Shown here: positions 24,892 through 59,236 of the stretch, piece after piece
Numbering within the stretch: position 1 is the first letter of the stretch
Layout: every line of letters begins with the position of its first letter
Source of the DNA: a bacterium
Lineage (GTDB): Bacteria; Desulfobacterota; Desulfocorpusculales; Desulfocorpusculum
NCBI GenBank assembly: GCA_037481695.1
Contig: JBBFLE010000006.1
Span: 62,001 to 126,000 of the forward strand
Length of the DNA stretch: 64,000 nt
Direction of reading: 5' to 3'
Position numbers and translations under genes: made by a program
Notes under the pieces: model-generated
What the model saw: the letters and a program-made list of their open reading frames with translations, nothing else
Told to the model about the DNA's origin: nothing
The model's database searches: none

Positions 24892-26811
24892 ATGGGACAT
24901 AGCCTGGCCGAAAAACTCATCCAAAGCCACTTGGTAGAAGGCAGTTTGGAAAGGGGCAGGGAGGTGGGGATACGCATCGATCAGACCCTCACCCAGGATG
25001 CCACTGGTACGATGGTGTATCTGGCCTTTGAAGCCATGCAGATCCCCAGGGTCAAGACCCAGCTTTCAGTAAGCTACATAGATCACAACATTCTTCAGAC
25101 CGATTTCAAAAATGCCGACGACCACAGGTACCTCCAGAGCAGTGCTGCCAAGTTCGGGGTGCTGCTTTCCCCTGCGGGCAACGGCATATCTCACCACGTG
25201 CACAGGCAAAGGTTCGGAGTTCCTGGCATGTCCTTGCTGGGATCGGACAGCCATACCACCACCGGAGGCTGCCTGGGCATGCTGGCCATAGGAGCCGGGG
25301 GGCTGGACGTGGCCTTGGCCATGGCAGGCAGAGCCTTCCACTTTGTCATGCCCAGGATCTGGGGTATCCATCTCAGCGGGAAGCTTCAGCCCTGGGTGTC
25401 GGGAAAGGATGTGATCCTGGAGCTTCTCAGGCGCTACAGCGTCAAGGGAGGCCTGGGGACCATAATGGAATTCTTCGGACCAGGGGTGGAAAATCTGGAC
25501 ATGGCTGCACGTGGGACTATCTGCAACATGGGGGTAGACATAGGGGCCACCGCAGCCATTTTCCCATCTGACGAGATCACCCGTGGATACCTGGCCCTGC
25601 AGGGCAGGGAGAAGGACTGGATACCCCTTCAGGCAGATGCAGATGCCAGGTACGATCAGGTGACGGAGCTGGACTTGAGCAGCATCGAGCCACTTGTGGC
25701 CTGTCCTCACTCCATGGACAAGGTGAGACCGGCAGCCGAACTGGGGGATGTTGAAATAGCTCAGGTCATAGTGGGTTCCTCCACCAATGGCTCATACAGG
25801 GACATAATGATGGCTGCGCTGGTGCTCAAAGACAGGCGAGTTCATCCGTCTCTAAGCTTTGATGTGAACCCAGGGAGCCGCCAGGTTCTGGAGAACGTTA
25901 TCCTGATGGGTGGGCTACTCCATCTTGTGCACGGGGGGGCCAGGGTCCACCAACCAGGATGTCTTGGTTGCATAGGCATGGGTCAGGTGCCACCCACCGG
26001 CAGCAACTCCCTTCGCACCATGCCGCGAAACTTTCCCGGCAGAAGTGGCTCCAAAGATGACAGGGTGTATCTCTGTTCGCCTGAGACAGCGGCTGCATCT
26101 GGCCTCTTTGGTAGAATAACGGATCCGAGGGAACTTGGGGATTACCCTCAGGTGCCTTTTCCTGAGCGGTTCTCCTGGAGTAGTGACTGGTTCATAGCCC
26201 CGGCCCATGACCCCTCTTCGGTGGAGATAGTCCGAGGGCCAAATATCCAACCCTTCCCCCAATTCCCTCCTTTGGAGGAGGACATCGAGGCAGAGGTGCT
26301 CCTTGTGCTGGGAGACAACATCTCCACAGATCACATAATCCCAGCCGGTAATAGGGTTCTGCCATTGAGAAGCAACATCCCGGCCATAAGTCGGTTCGTT
26401 TTCGACATGGTGGACGAGACCTTCGCCCAGAGAGCCCAGGAGGCCAGAAGCGGGATCATAGTGGCAGGTGAAAACTATGGCCAGGGTTCCTCCAGAGAGC
26501 ATGCGGCCCTGGCACCCAGATACTTGGGGATCAGGGTGAAGATAGCCAAGAGTTTTGCCAGGATTCACAAGGCCAACCTCATCAATTACGGAATAGTGCC
26601 CTTGGAGTTCTCTGAGCCGAGCCAATATCCCATGCTGAGCAGGGGCCAGAAAATCAAGTTTCCGGGGATCCGTAGTGCAGTCCTTCAAGGGGCTTCCCAG
26701 GTGAAGGCTTTGCTAGGGGACAAGGAGATCTTATTGAACCTGAAGCTTACCCCCAGGGAAAGGGAGGTCCTGGCCCAGGGAGGAGCCCTCAACTGGGCCA
26801 GAGAAAGATAG
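24892..26811 (+). CDS. Aconitate hydratase, Aquifex-type
   Basis: 639 aa with a GGAGGGAAG site at ATG. It isomerises citrate and isocitrate using a 4Fe-4S cluster. Conserved segments: TLTQDATGTM, YIDHNILQ, GSDSHTTTGG, GCLGCIGMGQ (Cys357, Cys360), NFPGRSG, GDNISTDHI and the catalytic GQGSSREHA. The length and motifs fit the single-chain Aquifex/clostridial type. The third cluster ligand is normally the Cys of GSCTN, but here the sequence reads VGSSTNGSY with Ser297 (codon TCC at 25780). The other active-site motifs are intact, so it is either a genuine variant, an enzyme with a differently ligated cluster, or a base error. Confidence 0.93.
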   Translation: MGHSLAEKLIQSHLVEGSLERGREVGIRIDQTLTQDATGTMVYLAFEAMQIPRVKTQLSVSYIDHNILQTDFKNADDHRYLQSSAAKFGVLLSPAGNGISHHVHRQRFGVPGMSLLGSDSHTTTGGCLGMLAIGAGGLDVALAMAGRAFHFVMPRIWGIHLSGKLQPWVSGKDVILELLRRYSVKGGLGTIMEFFGPGVENLDMAARGTICNMGVDIGATAAIFPSDEITRGYLALQGREKDWIPLQADADARYDQVTELDLSSIEPLVACPHSMDKVRPAAELGDVEIAQVIVGSSTNGSYRDIMMAALVLKDRRVHPSLSFDVNPGSRQVLENVILMGGLLHLVHGGARVHQPGCLGCIGMGQVPPTGSNSLRTMPRNFPGRSGSKDDRVYLCSPETAAASGLFGRITDPRELGDYPQVPFPERFSWSSDWFIAPAHDPSSVEIVRGPNIQPFPQFPPLEEDIEAEVLLVLGDNISTDHIIPAGNRVLPLRSNIPAISRFVFDMVDETFAQRAQEARSGIIVAGENYGQGSSREHAALAPRYLGIRVKIAKSFARIHKANLINYGIVPLEFSEPSQYPMLSRGQKIKFPGIRSAVLQGASQVKALLGDKEILLNLKLTPREREVLAQGGALNWARER

Positions 26812-27047
26812 GATGCAAAATCTGACCTGATCCAGGCCATTCAGAAGGATCAGGGAGCTCAGGGGCCTGAGTTCGCAACCCGCTGGTCTTTGGCCATTCC
26901 CAAAGCTGGCAAGGACCCGAGAGGAAAGTCAGGCTGCGCTGGACACAAACCAGTTGACCCTCAGTCTGTTCCAGGATGTGGTGAAGGCAGCCTGCATAAT
27001 CCGGTCATGGGAATAAATGCTGGCCAGGCCCGGTTGTGTCTTGTACA

Positions 27048-28229
27048 TCAGCTCCTTTGCTCCAAGGGTCTCCACTCGCATTTGTCAGGGCCACAGTAAG
27101 AGCCGATATAATCTGCCTGAGGCCTGTACAGTTGAGGCTTTCCCTGAGCCTCTCCAAGACGCTCCTCTATGATGTGAGCCACCCAGCCGGCTGTCCTGGC
27201 AATGGCAAACACTGGGGTGAAAAGATCCTTGGGTATGCCCATGGCATGATAGGTGGGAGCGCTGTAAAAGTCCACGTTGGTGGGAATAGTGCGGCCCTTT
27301 AGTCTCTGGAATTCTTCTTTGGCGGCCCGTTCGATTTCCACCGCAAGCTCGTACCAATGGGTCTGGCCTTTTCGTTTTCCTATGGCCTCGGCCATGGGCT
27401 TGAGCACCTTAACCCTCGGGTCATCTACCTCGTACACAGCATGCCCCAGGCCCATGATGCGCTTTCCTTCCTGGAGTCTCTTGGCCACCCACTGCTGGGC
27501 CCTGTCCTTGGATCCAACCTCCTCCAGCATGATCATGACGCGGGTATTGGCTCCGCCGTGGAGCTCGCCTGCCAGGGAGGCTACGGCTGCGGCCACTGCC
27601 CCGTAAGTGTGAGATCTGGTGGAGGCCACCGCCCTGGCTGTAAAGGTGGAGGCATTGAAGGAGTGCTCTGCGTGAAGGATCAGGCAAACATCCAGATCCC
27701 GCTCGGTCTGGGGATCTGCCCTGTGCCCGGTGAGCATGCGTAGAAAGTCTGCTGCGTGGGGAAGCGATGGATCTGGTGGCACCACAGGAAGCCCTTTTCG
27801 GATCCTCTCCCAGGCTGCCACAATGGTGGGGAACGCACCTATGATCCTGAGCCCCCTGTCCACCTCCGCAGGCCGACTCTCGTCCCTGATATTGGTGTCA
27901 TAGTCGGACAGGAAGGCCGAGGCTCCCTGGAGCACATCCATGGGGGAGGCCGAGGAGGGCCTCAGTCGCATGGAATTAATGATGGCCTCCGGGATCTGCC
28001 TGAAGTAAGCCAGCCTGGAGGAGAACTCCTTTAGCTCCTGAGGGGATGGGAGCCTTGCTTCCAAGAGAAGGAAGGCTGTCTCCTCGTAAGTTGAGTTGGC
28101 TGCCAGATCCAAGACATCGTAGCCCCTGTAGATGAGCACACCCCTCTTAGGGTCTATTCCGCATATCAGGGTGTCGGCCACTGGGATATCCCTGAGACCT
28201 ATGTTTTTTATGTTTGTTATGCACTCCAT
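27048..28229 (-). CDS. gltA: Citrate synthase (Si type)
   Basis: 393 aa from ATG 28229 with GGAGGGGG 7 nt upstream; further ATGs to 28262 lack this site. It condenses acetyl-CoA and oxaloacetate. Catalytic regions are present: AEHSFNASTFTAR, GELHGGAN, GLGHAVYEVDDPR and NVDFYSAP (active-site His, His and Asp). The length fits the short type I/2-methylcitrate synthase group, so use of propionyl-CoA cannot be excluded. It is convergent with aconitase and divergent from korDABC. Confidence 0.95.
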   Translation of the reverse strand: MECITNIKNIGLRDIPVADTLICGIDPKRGVLIYRGYDVLDLAANSTYEETAFLLLEARLPSPQELKEFSSRLAYFRQIPEAIINSMRLRPSSASPMDVLQGASAFLSDYDTNIRDESRPAEVDRGLRIIGAFPTIVAAWERIRKGLPVVPPDPSLPHAADFLRMLTGHRADPQTERDLDVCLILHAEHSFNASTFTARAVASTRSHTYGAVAAAVASLAGELHGGANTRVMIMLEEVGSKDRAQQWVAKRLQEGKRIMGLGHAVYEVDDPRVKVLKPMAEAIGKRKGQTHWYELAVEIERAAKEEFQRLKGRTIPTNVDFYSAPTYHAMGIPKDLFTPVFAIARTAGWVAHIIEERLGEAQGKPQLYRPQADYIGSYCGPDKCEWRPLEQRS

Positions 28230-28329
28230 GGAAACCCCCTCCATTGGTTGGTCTTCTGCCAAAGATCATGCATTCTTGGATGACTCTGGGCCGAGATGAT
28301 ACCTTTGACTAAAATCCCTTTCATATTTC

Positions 28330-28359
28330 TCCATACAACAGGCTGCTTACACTTGTCAA
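28330..28359 (-). promoter_or_regulatory. Candidate promoter for citrate synthase
   Basis: On the minus strand: TTGACA (28354-28359), an 18-nt spacer, then TATGGA (28330-28335). The -35 is perfect and the -10 weak, so an activator may be needed. The leader would be about 95 nt. Confidence 0.4.
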
Positions 28360-28404
28360 AGATAATCCGGGGCTGCCCGTGGCTGCAAGGCAAAACTCAT
28401 GGGC

Positions 28405-28433
28405 TTACTAGCCTATTCAGGATATGCTATAAG
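28405..28433 (+). promoter_or_regulatory. Candidate promoter for korDABC
   Basis: TTACTA (28405-28410), a 17-nt spacer and TATAAG (28428-28433), with an upstream TG giving an extended -10 (TGCTATAAG). It lies about 40 nt before the korD ATG. Confidence 0.45.
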
Positions 28434-28474
28434 AAGCTCGTGGGAGACGGATTCAGATGTGCTCTGGAGGAGTC

Positions 28475-28738
28475 ATGAGGGCGCAACTCAAGACAGCCCC
28501 AAGAAAAAAGAGGCCCAAGGGGTCAAGGGAACTTCGGGTGTACAGGAGTTGGTGCAAACGTTGCGGGATCTGTGTGGAGTTTTGCCCCAAACAAGCCTTG
28601 GAAAGGGATGAGGCGGGTTATCCGCGTTGGAAGGAGCAGAAGGCCTGCGTGCTTTGCAGGCTTTGTGAACTTAGATGCCCAGATTTTGCCATAGAGGTGC
28701 TGGGGGAACAAGGGGGGAAGGATGAGCCCGAGCAGTGA
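28475..28738 (+). CDS. korD: 2-oxoacid:ferredoxin oxidoreductase, delta (ferredoxin) subunit
   Basis: 87 aa from ATG 28475 (GGAGGAG site). Two ferredoxin clusters of ligands, CKRCGICVEFCP and CVLCRLCELRCP, bind 2x[4Fe-4S]. It carries electrons between the TPP-enzyme and external ferredoxin. It overlaps korA by 17 nt and heads the operon. Confidence 0.93.
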   Translation: MRAQLKTAPRKKRPKGSRELRVYRSWCKRCGICVEFCPKQALERDEAGYPRWKEQKACVLCRLCELRCPDFAIEVLGEQGGKDEPEQ

Positions 28739-29873
28739 GTCCTCCAGGGCAAGGCTGATCCAAGGTAACGAGGCCTGTGCAGAGGGAGCTGTGGCAGCCG
28801 GCTGCAGGTTTTATGCAGGTTACCCCATCACGCCTTCTTCGGAGATAGCCGAGGTGCTCTCCTACAGGCTGCCGGCGGTGGGGGGTACCTTCATCCAAAT
28901 GGAGGACGAGATCGCCAGCCTGGGTGCAGTGATCGGCGCTTCTTTGGCCGGAGTGAAAGCCATGACCGCCACAAGCGGACCGGGTTTTTCCCTCATGCAG
29001 GAGCACATAGGCTTTGCATGTATGGCCGAGGTGCCCTGTGTGGTGGTCAATGTCATGCGAGGGGGGCCCAGCACCGGGCTTCCCACCCATCCTTCCCAGG
29101 GGGATGTGCAGCAAGCCAGATGGGGAACCCATGGAGACCATCCCATAATAGCCCTTACTCCCTGGAGCGTGAAGGAGTGTTTCCTGCTCACGGTAAGGGC
29201 CTTTAACCTATCGGAAAAGTACCGCACACCGGTCATACTGCTCATGGACGAGGTGGTGGGGCACATGAGGGAAAATGTTGTGTTGCCCGAGGCAGACTCA
29301 TTGGAGGTCATAGACCGGGTCAAACCCAATGTGCCCCCTGAGTGGTACATCCCGTACGAGGACACGCCTTTTGGGGTCCCGCCCATGGCCCCCTTTGGTG
29401 AGGGCTACAGGTATCATGTCACGGGCCTCACCCATGACATCAGAGGCTTTCCCACCCTCCGTGAGGATGAGATCCAGCCCTTCATGAGCCGGCTTTTCCG
29501 CAAGATATGGACCCACCTGGAGGACATTCAGACCTGGGAGACCTATGAGATGGAGGATGCCGAGGCATGCATCGTGGCGTACGGCTCGGTGGCCAGAGCA
29601 GCCAAGAGGGCCGTTGTGGAGGCCAGGTCAAGGGGCATGAGGGTAGGGCTCCTGAGGCTCATAACCATATGGCCCTTTTGCAGAAGGGCTGTGGAGTCTG
29701 TGCTGGGAAGGTGCCGGGTGATAGTGGTGCCAGAGATGAACCTGGGGCAGATCTCCAGGGAGGTGAAGAGGGTGGTGCAAGGCAGGGCCAGGGTGCTTAC
29801 GGTTAGCAAGGCCCTGGGCAGGCTCCTTACACCCCAGGAGATCCTGGAGCCCTTGGGGGAGGTGCCCAGATGA
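28722..29873 (+). CDS. korA: 2-oxoacid:ferredoxin oxidoreductase, alpha subunit
   Basis: 383 aa with a GGGGGGAAGG site. Signature segments are AGYPITPSSEIAEVL, QMEDEIASLGAVIGAS and TATSGPGFSLMQEHIG, as in KorA/VorB-type alpha subunits with a C-terminal domain II (VAYGSVARAAKRAV). It forms the TPP-binding interface with KorB. 2-oxoglutarate is the likeliest substrate because of the citrate synthase and aconitase genes beside it; branched-chain 2-oxoacids are the alternative. Its stop overlaps korB by 4 nt. Confidence 0.93.
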   Translation: MSPSSESSRARLIQGNEACAEGAVAAGCRFYAGYPITPSSEIAEVLSYRLPAVGGTFIQMEDEIASLGAVIGASLAGVKAMTATSGPGFSLMQEHIGFACMAEVPCVVVNVMRGGPSTGLPTHPSQGDVQQARWGTHGDHPIIALTPWSVKECFLLTVRAFNLSEKYRTPVILLMDEVVGHMRENVVLPEADSLEVIDRVKPNVPPEWYIPYEDTPFGVPPMAPFGEGYRYHVTGLTHDIRGFPTLREDEIQPFMSRLFRKIWTHLEDIQTWETYEMEDAEACIVAYGSVARAAKRAVVEARSRGMRVGLLRLITIWPFCRRAVESVLGRCRVIVVPEMNLGQISREVKRVVQGRARVLTVSKALGRLLTPQEILEPLGEVPR

Positions 29874-30757
29874 ACGGTGAACAGCGCCTCATTTATCAAT
29901 ACCTTCGCCACGACAAGAAGTTTCCCCATGTTTGGTGTCCAGGCTGCGGCAATGGCATAGTGTTGGGTTCTCTGATTCGCACTGTGCACAAGCTGGGGCT
30001 TTCCAAAGATGAGGTGGTGCTGGTCTCTGGAATAGGCTGTGCGGGCAGGCTTCCGGTATACGTGGATTTCAATACATTACATACAACTCATGGCAGGGCT
30101 CTTACCTTTGCCACCGGGATAAAGCTGGCCAAGGCCCAACTGAAGGTGATAGTGATAATGGGTGACGGAGACGCCACGGCCATAGGGGGAAATCACCTGA
30201 TTCATGCAGCACGGCGCAACGTGGATCTGACGGCAATAATAGTCAACAACAACATATATGGGATGACCGGAGGCCAGTCCTCCCCCACTACTCCCCATGG
30301 ACTCAGGGCCAGCACCTCCCCATACGGACATGCGGAACATGCTTTTGATATATCCCGTCTGGCAGAGGCTGCGGGAGCCAGCCTGGTCGCCCGCGGGACC
30401 ATCTATCACGTGAATCTGTTGGACAAGCTCTTTGAGAAAGCAGTGGAGAAGGTGGGCTTTGCTCTGGTGGAAGTCATAAGCCACTGCCCTACCCACTTTG
30501 GGAAATTGAACCTGCTGGGTGGACCACTGCAGAGCATGCATTGGATGGCGGAGCATGCCGTGCCAGTGGAAAGGGCCAAGAAATTGAAGGCTGAAGAACT
30601 ACAAGGTAAATTCCGGATTGGGGTCTTGGTGGACAGGGACATGCCGGACTACCAAAGCGAGTATCAACGTGTCAGGGAAAGAGCCACCGAGGCTGTGCCT
30701 TACCGCATAGATCCTCAAGAGGTCTCTAAGATGCTGGAGTCTCATCAGATCTATTGA
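29870..30757 (+). CDS. korB: 2-oxoacid:ferredoxin oxidoreductase, beta (TPP) subunit
   Basis: 295 aa. CPGCGNGIVLG carries an early CxxC, and the thiamine-diphosphate Mg motif is MGDGDATAIGG...NVDLTAIIVNNN, followed by NIYGMTGGQSSPTTP. Length and motifs fit KorB. It is the catalytic partner of KorA; the reaction couples oxidative decarboxylation of a 2-oxoacid to ferredoxin reduction, or the reverse reductive carboxylation. Confidence 0.95.
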   Translation: MNGEQRLIYQYLRHDKKFPHVWCPGCGNGIVLGSLIRTVHKLGLSKDEVVLVSGIGCAGRLPVYVDFNTLHTTHGRALTFATGIKLAKAQLKVIVIMGDGDATAIGGNHLIHAARRNVDLTAIIVNNNIYGMTGGQSSPTTPHGLRASTSPYGHAEHAFDISRLAEAAGASLVARGTIYHVNLLDKLFEKAVEKVGFALVEVISHCPTHFGKLNLLGGPLQSMHWMAEHAVPVERAKKLKAEELQGKFRIGVLVDRDMPDYQSEYQRVRERATEAVPYRIDPQEVSKMLESHQIY

Positions 30758-30774
30758 TTCCAGGGGCTGAACAG

Positions 30775-31353
30775 ATGGCTGAGCGCTACGAGGTCAGGTT
30801 TAGCGGCACGGGTGGGCAGGGGGTAGTACTGGCAGGCATGATCCTTGCCGAGGCAGCAGGGCTCTTCGGAGGAAAGCATGTGGTACAAACGGTCAGCTAT
30901 GGCCCGCAGGTGAGGGGTGGTAACAGCAATGCCGAGGTTGTGATCAGTGAAGAGGAGATAGACTACCCAAGGCCCCTTGGCCTGGACCTCCTGGTGCCTT
31001 TCACCCAGCAGGGTTGCGACGAAGGGGCCAGGCTTCTGAAACCCAAGGGTGTTGTGCTTCTGGATCCTGAACTGGTGAGCCAGATGCCGGAGGGGTGGGT
31101 GGCATCTCTTCCCCTCAGGAAGACGGCCCTGGAAGCCACGGGAAGGGCCCAGATGGCAAATGTGGTCTCCCTGGGGGCAGTTGTAGTGCTTTGCCCCCAT
31201 GTGGACCTGGAGGCCATGAGCGCTGCGATAAAGGAGAGGGCACCCAGGGGATTGGAAGAAGTTTTCATCAAGGCCCTAAACGCTGGTTACGAACTGGCCG
31301 ATGCCATGCGTGCCAAGATTTCCTTTAGGGAGGCTGCCTCCCCTGAGGATTAA
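30775..31353 (+). CDS. korC: 2-oxoacid:ferredoxin oxidoreductase, gamma subunit
   Basis: 192 aa from ATG 30775; a TTG at 30754 overlapping korB is possible but poorer. The domain III pattern is present: SGTGGQGVVLAGMILAEAA, SYGPQVRGGNSNAEVV. It binds CoA in characterised homologues. It is the last gene of korDABC. Confidence 0.93.
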   Translation: MAERYEVRFSGTGGQGVVLAGMILAEAAGLFGGKHVVQTVSYGPQVRGGNSNAEVVISEEEIDYPRPLGLDLLVPFTQQGCDEGARLLKPKGVVLLDPELVSQMPEGWVASLPLRKTALEATGRAQMANVVSLGAVVVLCPHVDLEAMSAAIKERAPRGLEEVFIKALNAGYELADAMRAKISFREAASPED

Positions 31354-55061: not shown

Positions 55062-55601
55062 TCACCCCTTCAAAAGTATTTCTTTAAGGCCCGCCAACTG
55101 TGTGCGGACACTGCCGTCATAAACCGTATCGCCTATCTGTGTGACCAGTCCGCCTATGAGTTCGGGATCTTGCCATACCTGCAGGAAAACCTGCTTTCCT
55201 GTAATGGCTTCCAGCCTCTCCTTGAGTTCCTTTAGGATGGATTCATCAAGGGGAACCGCGCTGGCTACCTTGGCCGTGATTCTGCCGGCCAATTCATCGG
55301 CCAGCATCTGGTAGCAGCGCACTATGTCCTTGAAGGAGCCAATCCTCCTCTTATCCACCAGGAGAAGGAGGAAATTCCTCACCACCTGGGAGAAGTTCAA
55401 CCTCTGATATATGGCGCTCAGCAGCCCTTTTTTGTCTTCTCTCTCGTAGATGGGATTCACCATGACGGCTTTCAATTCTGGGCTGGCCTCCAGCAATTCC
55501 TGGAAAGCCTTGAGCTCCTGTCCATACTGCTCATATTTCCCGTCTTCTTGTCCTATCTGAATGAGCGCCCTGGCGTAGCGTTTCGCTATTATCTCGTTCA
55601 T
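55062..55601 (-). CDS. atpH: ATP synthase delta subunit
   Basis: 179 aa. It starts with MNEIIAKRYARALIQIGQE and ends with ELIGGLVTQIGDTVYDGSVR, both delta signatures. It connects F1 to the peripheral stalk. Its ATG overlaps the b-subunit stop by 1 nt. Confidence 0.95.
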   Translation of the reverse strand: MNEIIAKRYARALIQIGQEDGKYEQYGQELKAFQELLEASPELKAVMVNPIYEREDKKGLLSAIYQRLNFSQVVRNFLLLLVDKRRIGSFKDIVRCYQMLADELAGRITAKVASAVPLDESILKELKERLEAITGKQVFLQVWQDPELIGGLVTQIGDTVYDGSVRTQLAGLKEILLKG

Positions 55602-56176
55602 CAGGCCGTTTTCCCCACGCTTTGCAAGTACTGTTGGATCAATCTTTCATGGTCCTTGGGATCGATGCGCTCCTTGAGAAGCGCTTCAGCTATGCGTGCC
55701 GCCAGCTCTACCGCCTCCTTGCGCAGCACGGATTGGGCCTTTTTGAATTCCTGCTCAGCGGTCAACTCGGCTTGCTTTCGGATCTTGTCCGCCTCTTTTC
55801 TGGCATTGGCCAGGATACGTTCCTTTTCCACCCGTCCCTGCTCCAGGAGCATACCCTTGAGCTCTTCCATCTCTTTTTGGGCTTGGGTCAGTTTTTTCTC
55901 CATCTCCTTGAAACGGGCCTCGGCTTCAGCCTTGGCGCGCTGGGCTTCCTCTAAGGCCTCTTTCACACCCTGCTGCCTTTGGTTGAGGAAATTGCGCACG
56001 GGCTTGCGCAGAAAATAATACAGAAGCCCGGCCAGAAGCAGAAAGTTCACCAGCCTCATGGCCAAGGTGAAACCGCTTTCCAGTTCCACCTCATGAGCTC
56101 CCCCAGAGGCAAGGGCCCAGGCCGGAAGCATCCAAGCCAGGATGATCAAAGAGTTCTTCATTATCCTGCCCTTCAT
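55601..56176 (-). CDS. atpF: ATP synthase subunit b
   Basis: 191 aa. The start ATG 56176 overlaps the b' stop (ATGA) and has GGAGGG upstream; ATG 56161 is an alternative. A signal-like N-terminus is followed by one membrane helix (LVNFLLLAGLLYYFL) and a long charged coiled coil, the stator stalk. It differs from b' in having an extra N-terminal hydrophobic segment. Confidence 0.93.
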   Translation of the reverse strand: MKGRIMKNSLIILAWMLPAWALASGGAHEVELESGFTLAMRLVNFLLLAGLLYYFLRKPVRNFLNQRQQGVKEALEEAQRAKAEAEARFKEMEKKLTQAQKEMEELKGMLLEQGRVEKERILANARKEADKIRKQAELTAEQEFKKAQSVLRKEAVELAARIAEALLKERIDPKDHERLIQQYLQSVGKTA

Positions 56177-56607
56177 CTCAGAGCCCTCCCCAGGATCTTC
56201 TGGGCCATCTCCAGGCCGAGGGAATCTGCCTGGGCCTGAAGGGCCTGCCTTGCCCGATGGAGCTCCTGTTCCAGGCTCTTTCTGGCCTCTTCCACCGAGC
56301 GGGCGGCCTCGGAGCGGGCCTGTTCGAGCATCTTGCGCTCGGCCTCTATACCCTCGGCCTTGAGCTTCTCTTTTTCAGCAGCAGCTGCGCTCTTGGCCTT
56401 CTGGAGCTCTGCCTGATACTGCTCCCACTGCCTGGAGGTGCGCTCCTGAAGCTCCCGCACAGAGCGCTCGGAGTCCTCCACGCGCCGTCGGCGTTCGTCC
56501 AGAATTCCCAAGATCGGCTTGTACAAGAATTTGTTCAGGAGAAACAAGAGGACCAAAAAATTGGCCATCTGGATGAGGAGCGTGTAATCGAGCTGGATCA
56601 CGGCCAC
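56173..56607 (-). CDS. atpF': ATP synthase subunit b'
   Basis: 144 aa. One membrane helix (LLIQMANFLVLLFLLNKFLY), then a coiled coil (SERSVRELQERTSRQWEQY). With the b gene after it, the stator would be a b/b' heterodimer. It is the first gene of the operon, with GGAGGTG upstream. The a and c subunit genes are not in the window. Confidence 0.93.
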   Translation of the reverse strand: MAVIQLDYTLLIQMANFLVLLFLLNKFLYKPILGILDERRRRVEDSERSVRELQERTSRQWEQYQAELQKAKSAAAAEKEKLKAEGIEAERKMLEQARSEAARSVEEARKSLEQELHRARQALQAQADSLGLEMAQKILGRALR

Positions 56608-57397: not shown

Positions 57398-59236
57398 TTA
57401 CCTTCCGTTTTTGCCATCTGCCTCCACCATCTTGGCCAGTTCGTCAAATTTCATGTCAGCAGCCAGTATCCCTACGATCTCGTCCTGCTCGTTGCGGATA
57501 GGGGCCGAAACCGTGACCGCCAGCTGGTGGGTGAAACGGGATACATAGAAATCTGTGACGTGGCTCTTGCCATCCCTCAGAGGTCCTATGAACCAGGGCC
57601 TGTCCGAGTAATCCTCTTCTATGACCACCGGGGGATACTTGGCCCTGTCCACTATTTGAGTTATGAGCTTGGTGGTTATTCTGCCTTCCATGTTGGTCAC
57701 ATAAACCCATTGAATAAATGGGTTCTCTTCGGCCATTTGCTCCATGAGTGGCTCTTGCTGGGCAGGGTCCATGGAGCGCATCTGGGGCTTTTCGGCCAGT
57801 TCCTCTATGAGGTGCACTGCCACCTCGGCGGCCTTTTGTTTGAGTAGCTGCAGATCGCTCACAAAATACTCGGGCAGGTATTTCTTGGCCAACCTTCTCA
57901 TCTCGTCTGAACCTATGGCCGTGGTGCGACCTTCCTCGTATTGACGCATTATAGCCTTGTGGATCTTGGCCACGCCCGGATGGCGTTTGTCCACCATGCG
58001 CGCACCTGTGAGCCCAAGGTGGGTGTTTATCCAGTGCACCACTCCGGCTATGCCTGACTTGTCCGTGATGATGACGCTCAGTGGCCTGTGAAGGAACTTA
58101 TCGGTGTTAAAAATCGAATATATCTCAGGATTCTTCAGTATGCCGTCCACGTGTACCCCCGCGGAGGTGGCATTGAACTCCGAGCCTGCAAACGGGTAAT
58201 TGGGAGGAAGTCTGTGGCCTATTTCCTTTTCCATGTACTCGGCTATCTCGGTGATGACCGTGGTGTCCATGCCGTCGTGCTGACCCCGAAGAGAGATATA
58301 CTCGATTACCAGAGCCTCCACCGGGGTGTTGCCTGTTCTCTCCCCCAGACCCAAGAGAGCACCATTGGCAGCACTGCAACCATAAAGCCATGCGGTGGTC
58401 GCGTTTATGAGAGCCTTGTGAAAATCGTTGTGGCCGTGCCATTCCAGAAGCCGACCAGGGACTCCAGCATCGTCTATCATGGCCCTCACCAGCTTGTCTA
58501 CTGCCCTGGGAAGGGCTGCACCGGGATAAGTCACTCCCAGACCCAGGGTGTCGCACAACCTTATCTTTATGTCTATGCCGCTTTCCTCCCTGAGCTTCAT
58601 GAGTTCTTTGGCCAGAGGCACGCAAAAACCATAGATGTCCGCCCTGGTCACGTCCTCGAAGTGGCACCTGGGAATGATGCCATGGTTCAGGGCAGCCTTT
58701 GCCAGGGATAGGTATTCCTCAAAGGCTCTTCTTCGGTTCCAACCCAGCTTCAGGAAGATGTGGTAATCGGAAATGGACATGAGCATGCCCGTCTCTTTGA
58801 GACCCATCTCCTTGACCAGTCTCAGATCCTCCCTGTTGGCCCTGACCCAGGCTGTTATCTGCGGGAATCTGAAATCCTTGGCCAGACACCTCTCCACTGC
58901 CTCCCTGTCCTTGGGGCTGTAAAGGAAAAACTCGCACTGACGTATGACCCCGTCGCGGCCTCCCAGCCTGTGGAGCATCACGTAAAGGTCTTCTATCTGT
59001 TTGGGGGTGAAGGGGGGGCGTGCCTGCTGGCCGTCCCTGAAGGTGGTATCAGTTATGTACATGGCAGGGGGCGGATTTATGGGGATGATCTTCTGGTCAA
59101 AATCGATCCTGGGGATCTCATCCACCGGGAAGACCCCCCTTAAGAGATTGGGCTCCCCCACATCCCTGAGATCAGGTTCTTCAAACTTGGAGAGCTCATG
59201 ATAAAGAATTCTTTTTTCCCTATCCCACTTGGCCAT
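57398..59236 (-). CDS. HMGL-family enzyme (Re-citrate synthase-like) fused to a Cache domain
   Basis: 612 aa from ATG 59236, with a near-perfect AAAGGAGGTG site. An N-terminal arm of about 60 residues precedes a TIM-barrel of the isopropylmalate/homocitrate synthase superfamily: TDTTFRDGQQARPP, RCHFEDVTRADIYGF, LEWHGHNDFHK. The motif DGQQARPP and the length of the barrel match my recollection of Re-citrate synthases of anaerobes. The region about 500-605 is a Cache-type sensor fold (WVYVTNMEGRI, DYSDRPWFIGPLRDGK, VTDFYVSRFTHQLAVTVSA), with no membrane helix, so it should sense a cytosolic ligand. Substrate is unproven; homocitrate or citramalate synthesis are alternatives. Confidence 0.8.
   Translation of the reverse strand: MAKWDREKRILYHELSKFEEPDLRDVGEPNLLRGVFPVDEIPRIDFDQKIIPINPPPAMYITDTTFRDGQQARPPFTPKQIEDLYVMLHRLGGRDGVIRQCEFFLYSPKDREAVERCLAKDFRFPQITAWVRANREDLRLVKEMGLKETGMLMSISDYHIFLKLGWNRRRAFEEYLSLAKAALNHGIIPRCHFEDVTRADIYGFCVPLAKELMKLREESGIDIKIRLCDTLGLGVTYPGAALPRAVDKLVRAMIDDAGVPGRLLEWHGHNDFHKALINATTAWLYGCSAANGALLGLGERTGNTPVEALVIEYISLRGQHDGMDTTVITEIAEYMEKEIGHRLPPNYPFAGSEFNATSAGVHVDGILKNPEIYSIFNTDKFLHRPLSVIITDKSGIAGVVHWINTHLGLTGARMVDKRHPGVAKIHKAIMRQYEEGRTTAIGSDEMRRLAKKYLPEYFVSDLQLLKQKAAEVAVHLIEELAEKPQMRSMDPAQQEPLMEQMAEENPFIQWVYVTNMEGRITTKLITQIVDRAKYPPVVIEEDYSDRPWFIGPLRDGKSHVTDFYVSRFTHQLAVTVSAPIRNEQDEIVGILAADMKFDELAKMVEADGKNGR

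What the first reader, a model, noticed from the sequence alone, without database searches (positions are those of the whole stretch)
57398..59236. Condensing enzyme fused to a cytosolic Cache sensor domain
A Re-citrate synthase-like TIM barrel carries a C-terminal Cache-type fold, normally an extracytoplasmic receptor domain. I recall related sequences being misnamed in databases. Here it may be an allosteric domain, as ACT-like domains are in isopropylmalate synthase.
Basis: partly seen in the sequence, partly recalled or inferred. Interest (0 to 1): 0.6.

Follow-up and report, generated by a model that had tools for sequence, protein, structure and literature searches.

The report
Re-citrate synthase with built-in Cache sensor
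An enzyme that anaerobic bacteria use to make citrate, and from it glutamate, carries at its end a small-molecule sensor domain of the kind usually found outside the cell on receptors, and the sensor keeps most of the residues that grip amino acids, so the enzyme is probably switched by a metabolite it senses directly.

Summary
The minus-strand gene at 57398-59236 encodes a 612-residue soluble protein: an HMGL/LeuA-type condensing TIM barrel (residues 59-333) followed by one Cache (PDC) module (about 456-606). By sequence and fold the C-terminus matches amino-acid and pyruvate receptor domains (KinD, Tlp3, PctA), not the LeuA dimer domain, which this genome's own isopropylmalate synthase carries. 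The protein is 62% identical over its whole length, Cache included, to the orthologue in a 3,179,300-bp genome that I take to be Syntrophus aciditrophicus, whose Re-citrate synthase is biochemically characterised. Absence of Si-citrate synthase from most carriers, and TCA genes beside it, support Re-citrate synthase. The fusion is widespread (over 120 loci, at least eight phyla). New here: five of the six positions of the published amino-acid-binding Cache motif are kept (R546, W548, F549, Y564, D594; W and D invariant in 128 sequences); the first (Y121 of PctA) is not. Best reading: a Re-citrate synthase regulated in cis by an amino acid or similar ligand. Ligand and direction of control are unproved. 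No paper found in the searchable library joins Cache and Re-citrate synthase, but Pfam alone shows the architecture.

The parts
57398..59236 (-). Whole gene, 612 aa: Re-citrate synthase with C-terminal Cache domain
   Evidence: start ATG, MAKWD start conserved in relatives
58238..59062 (-). HMGL-like condensing TIM barrel, residues 59-333; FRDGQQ (66-71), EWHGHND (265-271), GERTGN (298-303) invariant or nearly so in 70 relatives
   Evidence: whole-model Foldseek best hit homocitrate synthase 6ktq, E 4e-24
58034..58165 (-). Weak homocitrate-synthase post-HMGL subdomain match, residues 358-401
   Evidence: PF22617, E 0.001, below cut-off
57794..57865 (-). Long helix, residues 458-481, joining barrel and Cache fold; N-terminal helix of the Cache unit
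   Evidence: DSSP on AF2 models
57419..57811 (-). Single Cache (PDC) module, residues 476-606, equivalent to the first (membrane-distal) half of a dCache receptor domain
57455..57601 (-). Amino-acid-type Cache motif R546-x-W548-F549-x14-Y564-x29-D594
   Evidence: conservation in 128 long forms; motif definition PMC11237719, PMC10104139
59327..61120 (-). aspS (aspartyl-tRNA synthetase), upstream neighbour; same order hisS-aspS-RCS in the presumed S. aciditrophicus genome
   Evidence: sequence; aspS upstream in 58 of 148 loci
27048..28262 (-). PF00285 citrate synthase (Si-type fold) of the same genome, beside aconitase (24892-26811 +) and 2-oxoacid:ferredoxin oxidoreductase-like genes (28722-31353 +)

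Best explanation
The protein is a Re-citrate synthase: a HMGL/LeuA-type condensing barrel that joins acetyl-CoA and oxaloacetate to citrate, the first step towards 2-oxoglutarate and glutamate in anaerobes. Its last ~155 residues are a cytosolic single Cache module whose pocket keeps most of the amino-acid motif. Proposed mechanism: a cytosolic metabolite, most likely an alpha-amino acid such as the pathway's end product glutamate, binds the pocket (R546 and W548 to the carboxylate, Y564 and D594 to the amino group). The change is passed through the long helix 458-481 to the barrel and adjusts citrate synthesis, as leucine does through the LeuA allosteric domain. Shown: architecture, predicted fold, conservation, kinship to a characterised Re-citrate synthase, genomic context. 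Inferred: activity of this copy, ligand, coupling, and direction (feedback inhibition is a guess).
For: Domains. Orthologue in a genome whose single contig is 3,179,300 bp (from memory the S. aciditrophicus SB length): 629 aa, 71,766 Da, 62% identical over residues 1-602; my recollection of the tagged purified enzyme is 72,892 Da, which fits only the Cache-bearing form. PMC12016533 names the S. aciditrophicus and C. kluyveri enzymes as known, isolated Re-citrate synthases. Desulfobacterota: RCS+/Si-CS- 83, RCS+/CS+ 15, RCS-/CS+ 82, neither 18; Fisher p 2.8e-22; 32 of 47 other carriers lack PF00285. Isocitrate-dehydrogenase-like, aconitase-family or malate-dehydrogenase-like genes lie directly downstream in 13, 8 and 7 loci, examples confirmed by NCBIfam. 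Motif: W548 128/128, D594 128/128, F549 127, R546 118, Y564 110 plus 15 F; five-position regex in 117/128. Structural and sequence neighbours are mainly amino-acid receptors.
Against: The aromatic Y121 position of the motif is not conserved (E541 here; full six-position regex in 11/128), so the ligand may not be a standard amino acid. The best fold match, KinD, binds pyruvate. Short forms without Cache exist in several phyla, so the domain is not needed for catalysis. Domain packing is uncertain (whole-model pTM 0.73). This genome also has an Si-type citrate synthase, so the need for this copy is less obvious. The Fisher test ignores shared ancestry.
Confidence: 0.6

Rival explanations
1. Re-citrate synthase whose Cache module senses a keto or carboxylic acid (pyruvate, oxaloacetate, 2-oxoglutarate, citrate) rather than an amino acid.
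For: Closest fold KinD, a pyruvate-binding Cache; R546 aligns with the KinD arginine mutated in 4jgq/4jgr (alignment); Y121 position lost.
Against: D594, which contacts the amino group in amino-acid sensors, is invariant in 128 sequences and is absent from KinD at the aligned place.
Confidence: 0.22
2. The Cache module is only an assembly or stability domain (dimer/tetramer contacts) with no ligand.
For: Repeated absence in short forms; PAS/Cache domains often dimerise (PMC8694187).
Against: The pocket motif residues are among the most conserved positions of the domain (Mann-Whitney p 2.6e-4); a pure scaffold need not keep them.
Confidence: 0.15
3. The protein is not a citrate synthase but another member of the HMGL condensing group (homocitrate, citramalate or isopropylmalate synthase).
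For: Best NCBIfam scores are to homocitrate/isopropylmalate models.
Against: All scores are far below cut-offs (nifV 133 against 462.9 bits); the genome has its own IPMS with LeuA_dimer; the Re-citrate synthase orthologue, Si-CS complementarity and TCA-gene context point to citrate.
Confidence: 0.05

Closest known systems
Re-citrate synthase of Syntrophus aciditrophicus (SYN_02536; Kim et al. 2013, cited in PMC12016533)
   Same: 62% identity over residues 1-602, same HMGL + Cache architecture, same hisS-aspS-RCS order
   Different: About 17 more C-terminal residues; Cache domain not discussed in any paper I could open (the 2013 paper itself is not held)
Short Re-citrate synthase type (C. kluyveri kind and ~450-490 aa forms L120-L128, L141-L152)
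   Same: Same catalytic clade for the L loci
   Different: No Cache domain; the C. kluyveri sequence itself could not be fetched
2-Isopropylmalate synthase LeuA
   Same: HMGL barrel plus C-terminal allosteric domain; the likely analogy of mechanism
   Different: Its C-terminal domain is LeuA_dimer (E 3.1e-38 in this genome's copy), not Cache
dCache_1AA amino-acid receptors (PctA, Tlp3, CtaA, Mlp24)
   Same: Cache fold and five of six motif positions
   Different: Those are double, extracytoplasmic, membrane-anchored; here a single cytosolic module on a metabolic enzyme
YkuI_C (cytosolic Cache of an EAL protein)
   Same: Intracellular Cache; 28 of 70 C-termini match PF10388
   Different: Attached to a c-di-GMP signalling domain, not a metabolic enzyme

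Membership tests
Re-citrate synthase (Kluyveri/Syntrophus clade) | Full-length homology to a biochemically characterised member | tested here: met
   62% over 602 residues to the protein of the 3,179,300-bp genome taken as S. aciditrophicus; the genome's identity rests on its remembered length
Re-citrate synthase (Kluyveri/Syntrophus clade) | HMGL metal and active-site motifs (FRDGQQ, HGHND, GERTGN) | tested here: met
   R67 D68 G69, H267, H269, N303 invariant in 70 sequences
Re-citrate synthase (Kluyveri/Syntrophus clade) | Takes the place of Si-citrate synthase | tested here: inconclusive
   Holds across the phylum, but this genome has both
Re-citrate synthase (Kluyveri/Syntrophus clade) | Re-face stereochemistry and oxaloacetate specificity | not testable with these tools
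   needs enzyme assay
Cache superfamily (single PDC module) | Sequence profile above curated cut-off | tested here: met
   PF02743 and PF22673
Cache superfamily (single PDC module) | Fold: long N-terminal helix plus PDC sheet | tested here: met
   predicted model
Cache superfamily (single PDC module) | Flanking membrane helices (usual, not universal, so not disqualifying) | tested here: not met
   no hydrophobic segment; YkuI_C and Diacid_rec are also principally intracellular (PMC4822843)
dCache_1AA amino-acid sensor | Motif [YFWL]xxxx[RK]xW[YFW]x13-17[YFW]x27-34D | tested here: not met
   five of six positions met; the first position is E541 and is variable in the family
dCache_1AA amino-acid sensor | Double-Cache arrangement | tested here: not met
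   profile positions 32-163 of 240 only
dCache_1AA amino-acid sensor | Binds amino acids | not testable with these tools
   needs ITC or thermal shift
2-Isopropylmalate synthase | LeuA_dimer domain and equivalog score | tested here: not met
   present in the genome's separate LeuA

The most novel reading that the evidence does not exclude
A Cache domain, known as an extracytoplasmic receptor module, works in the cytosol as a covalent allosteric amino-acid sensor of a central metabolic enzyme: end-product control of citrate and glutamate synthesis across many anaerobic phyla.
Probability: 0.45. Interest if true: 0.72.

Novelty: new variant of a known kind. Interest (0 to 1): 0.52.

Why it matters
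I found no known mechanism for the regulation of Re-citrate synthase, the entry to glutamate in many sulfate reducers and syntrophs. A conserved amino-acid-type pocket on the enzyme makes a direct, testable prediction. It would extend Cache domains from receptors to cytosolic control of central metabolism, where the main survey (PMC4822843) reported signal-transduction outputs.

Tried and rejected
Chance or spurious match: rejected (all 70 relatives match, predicted fold agrees). LeuA dimer domain: rejected. Membrane-bound receptor or signal peptide: rejected. Lineage-specific fusion: rejected; widespread. Viral contigs: no relative; plasmids: five weak hits, best a Deinococcus protein at 37% without Cache. 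The tree of catalytic domains puts short forms among long ones with 3-5 changes, but one clade of short forms is not rejected (p-AU 0.31), so the number of losses is unsettled. Clostridium kluyveri and Desulfovibrio vulgaris sequences could not be reached by name; the 2013 and 2011 enzyme papers are not held. A D. vulgaris mutant-library paper says nothing of this gene.

Full report
OBSERVATION. The gene lies on the minus strand, window 57398-59236, 612 aa. Pfam finds HMGL-like at 59-333 (E 1e-27), dCache_1 at 476-606 (E 1.7e-13, above cut-off) and MCP-like_PDC_1 at 497-601 (E 1.9e-11). No NCBIfam equivalog is reached; the best, nifV, scores 133 bits against a cut-off of 462.9. The highest 19-residue hydropathy is 1.05, so there is no membrane helix.

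FOLD. With 70 relatives, AlphaFold2 gives mean pLDDT 90.1 and pTM 0.73 for the whole chain, and pLDDT 89.1, pTM 0.86 for residues 456-612 alone. Foldseek puts the whole model beside homocitrate synthase 6ktq (E 4e-24), LeuA and citramalate synthase. It puts the C-terminal model beside the KinD sensor domain (E 4.8e-9) and then the amino-acid receptors Tlp3, CtaA, PctA/B/C and Mlp24, with cytosolic YkuI further down. A profile of the C-termini finds Tlp3 (1.5e-11), KinD and PctA by sequence alone.

DISTRIBUTION. Of 198 Desulfobacterota genomes, 98 carry a relative at E <= 1e-60, nearly all about 600 aa long. Titles of the 80 genome-contig loci include Nitrospirae, Spirochaetes, Elusimicrobia, Omnitrophota, Lentisphaerae, Armatimonadetes, Fibrobacteres and others. 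All 70 C-termini scanned match both Cache models. Short forms without Cache occur in the searches centred on the Armatimonadetes and Spirochaetia genomes and in three Desulfobacterota. In trees of the catalytic domain they fall among long forms (5 changes; 3 without distant rows), but a single short clade is not rejected (p-AU 0.31).

WHAT THE ENZYME IS. A genome of the order Syntrophales with a single contig of 3,179,300 bp, which from memory is the length of the S. aciditrophicus SB genome, encodes a 629-aa orthologue of 71,766 Da, 62% identical over residues 1-602, with a Cache HMM score of 219 bits and MCP-like_PDC_1 above cut-off. From memory, the purified Strep-tagged Re-citrate synthase of that species was reported as 72,892 Da per subunit, which requires the long form; the paper is not held. 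PMC12016533 refers to the S. aciditrophicus and C. kluyveri enzymes as known, isolated Re-citrate synthases. The order hisS-aspS-RCS is shared with the window.

CONTEXT. In the same 198 genomes, the protein and PF00285 citrate synthase tend to exclude each other: 83 RCS only, 82 CS only, 15 both, 18 neither, Fisher p 2.8e-22; the test ignores common descent. Thirty-two of 47 other carrier genomes have no PF00285 match. Isocitrate-dehydrogenase-like, aconitase-family and malate-dehydrogenase-like genes follow directly in 13, 8 and 7 of 148 loci, examples confirmed by NCBIfam (NADP-ICDH 667.6 bits in L025). The window's own genome is one of the 15 with both enzymes: a type-II citrate synthase lies at 27048-28262 beside aconitase and 2-oxoacid:ferredoxin oxidoreductase-like genes.

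THE SENSOR. The published amino-acid motif of Cache domains is [YFWL]xxxx[RK]xW[YFW]x13-17[YFW]x27-34D, with the first aromatic, R and W on the carboxylate and the later Y and D on the amino group (PMC11237719, PMC10104139). The family keeps R546 (118/128), W548 (128/128), F549 (127/128), Y564 (110, plus 15 F) and D594 (128/128), in the right spacing in 117 of 128 sequences. The first aromatic position is lost (E541; six-position regex 11/128). The five positions are more conserved than the rest of the domain (p 2.6e-4). The purine motif lacks the Asp and the amine motif lacks the Arg, so an amino-acid-like ligand is the best single guess, with a keto or carboxylic acid next because KinD binds pyruvate.

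MECHANISM. Inferred: ligand binds the Cache pocket; the long helix 458-481 transmits to the barrel; citrate synthesis is adjusted, probably as end-product inhibition by glutamate or a related amino acid. Neither ligand nor direction is shown.

NOVELTY. The enzyme is known and the two domains can be seen in Pfam. What I did not find in the open library is any paper linking Cache to Re-citrate synthase or to the HMGL and isopropylmalate synthase families. The Cache survey PMC4822843 describes all families as principally extracellular except YkuI_C and Diacid_rec, with known outputs in signal transduction. Hence: new variant of a known kind.

Noticed in passing
window 24892-31353: Aconitase, type-II citrate synthase and 2-oxoacid:ferredoxin oxidoreductase-like genes in one stretch; the genome thus holds both Si-type and Re-type citrate synthases, seen in 15 of 98 Desulfobacterota carriers.
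   Followed up: partly
L129 (Deinococcus wulumuqiensis plasmid pDrdI) 2992-4290: A distant, Cache-less relative labelled 'pyruvate carboxyltransferase' lies back to back with a gene annotated citrate/2-methylcitrate synthase.
   Followed up: no
G347, G383 and G540 genomes: Genomes holding two relatives, one long with Cache and one matching only the catalytic part; possible division of labour.
   Followed up: no
window 55601-56607: Two adjacent genes resembling ATP synthase b/b' subunits upstream of the delta and alpha subunit genes; judged from sequence only.
   Followed up: no
family-wide, residues 569-573 of the window protein: A TGALC stretch (THQLA in the window protein) is common in the Cache of relatives; its role in the pocket is unknown.
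   Followed up: no
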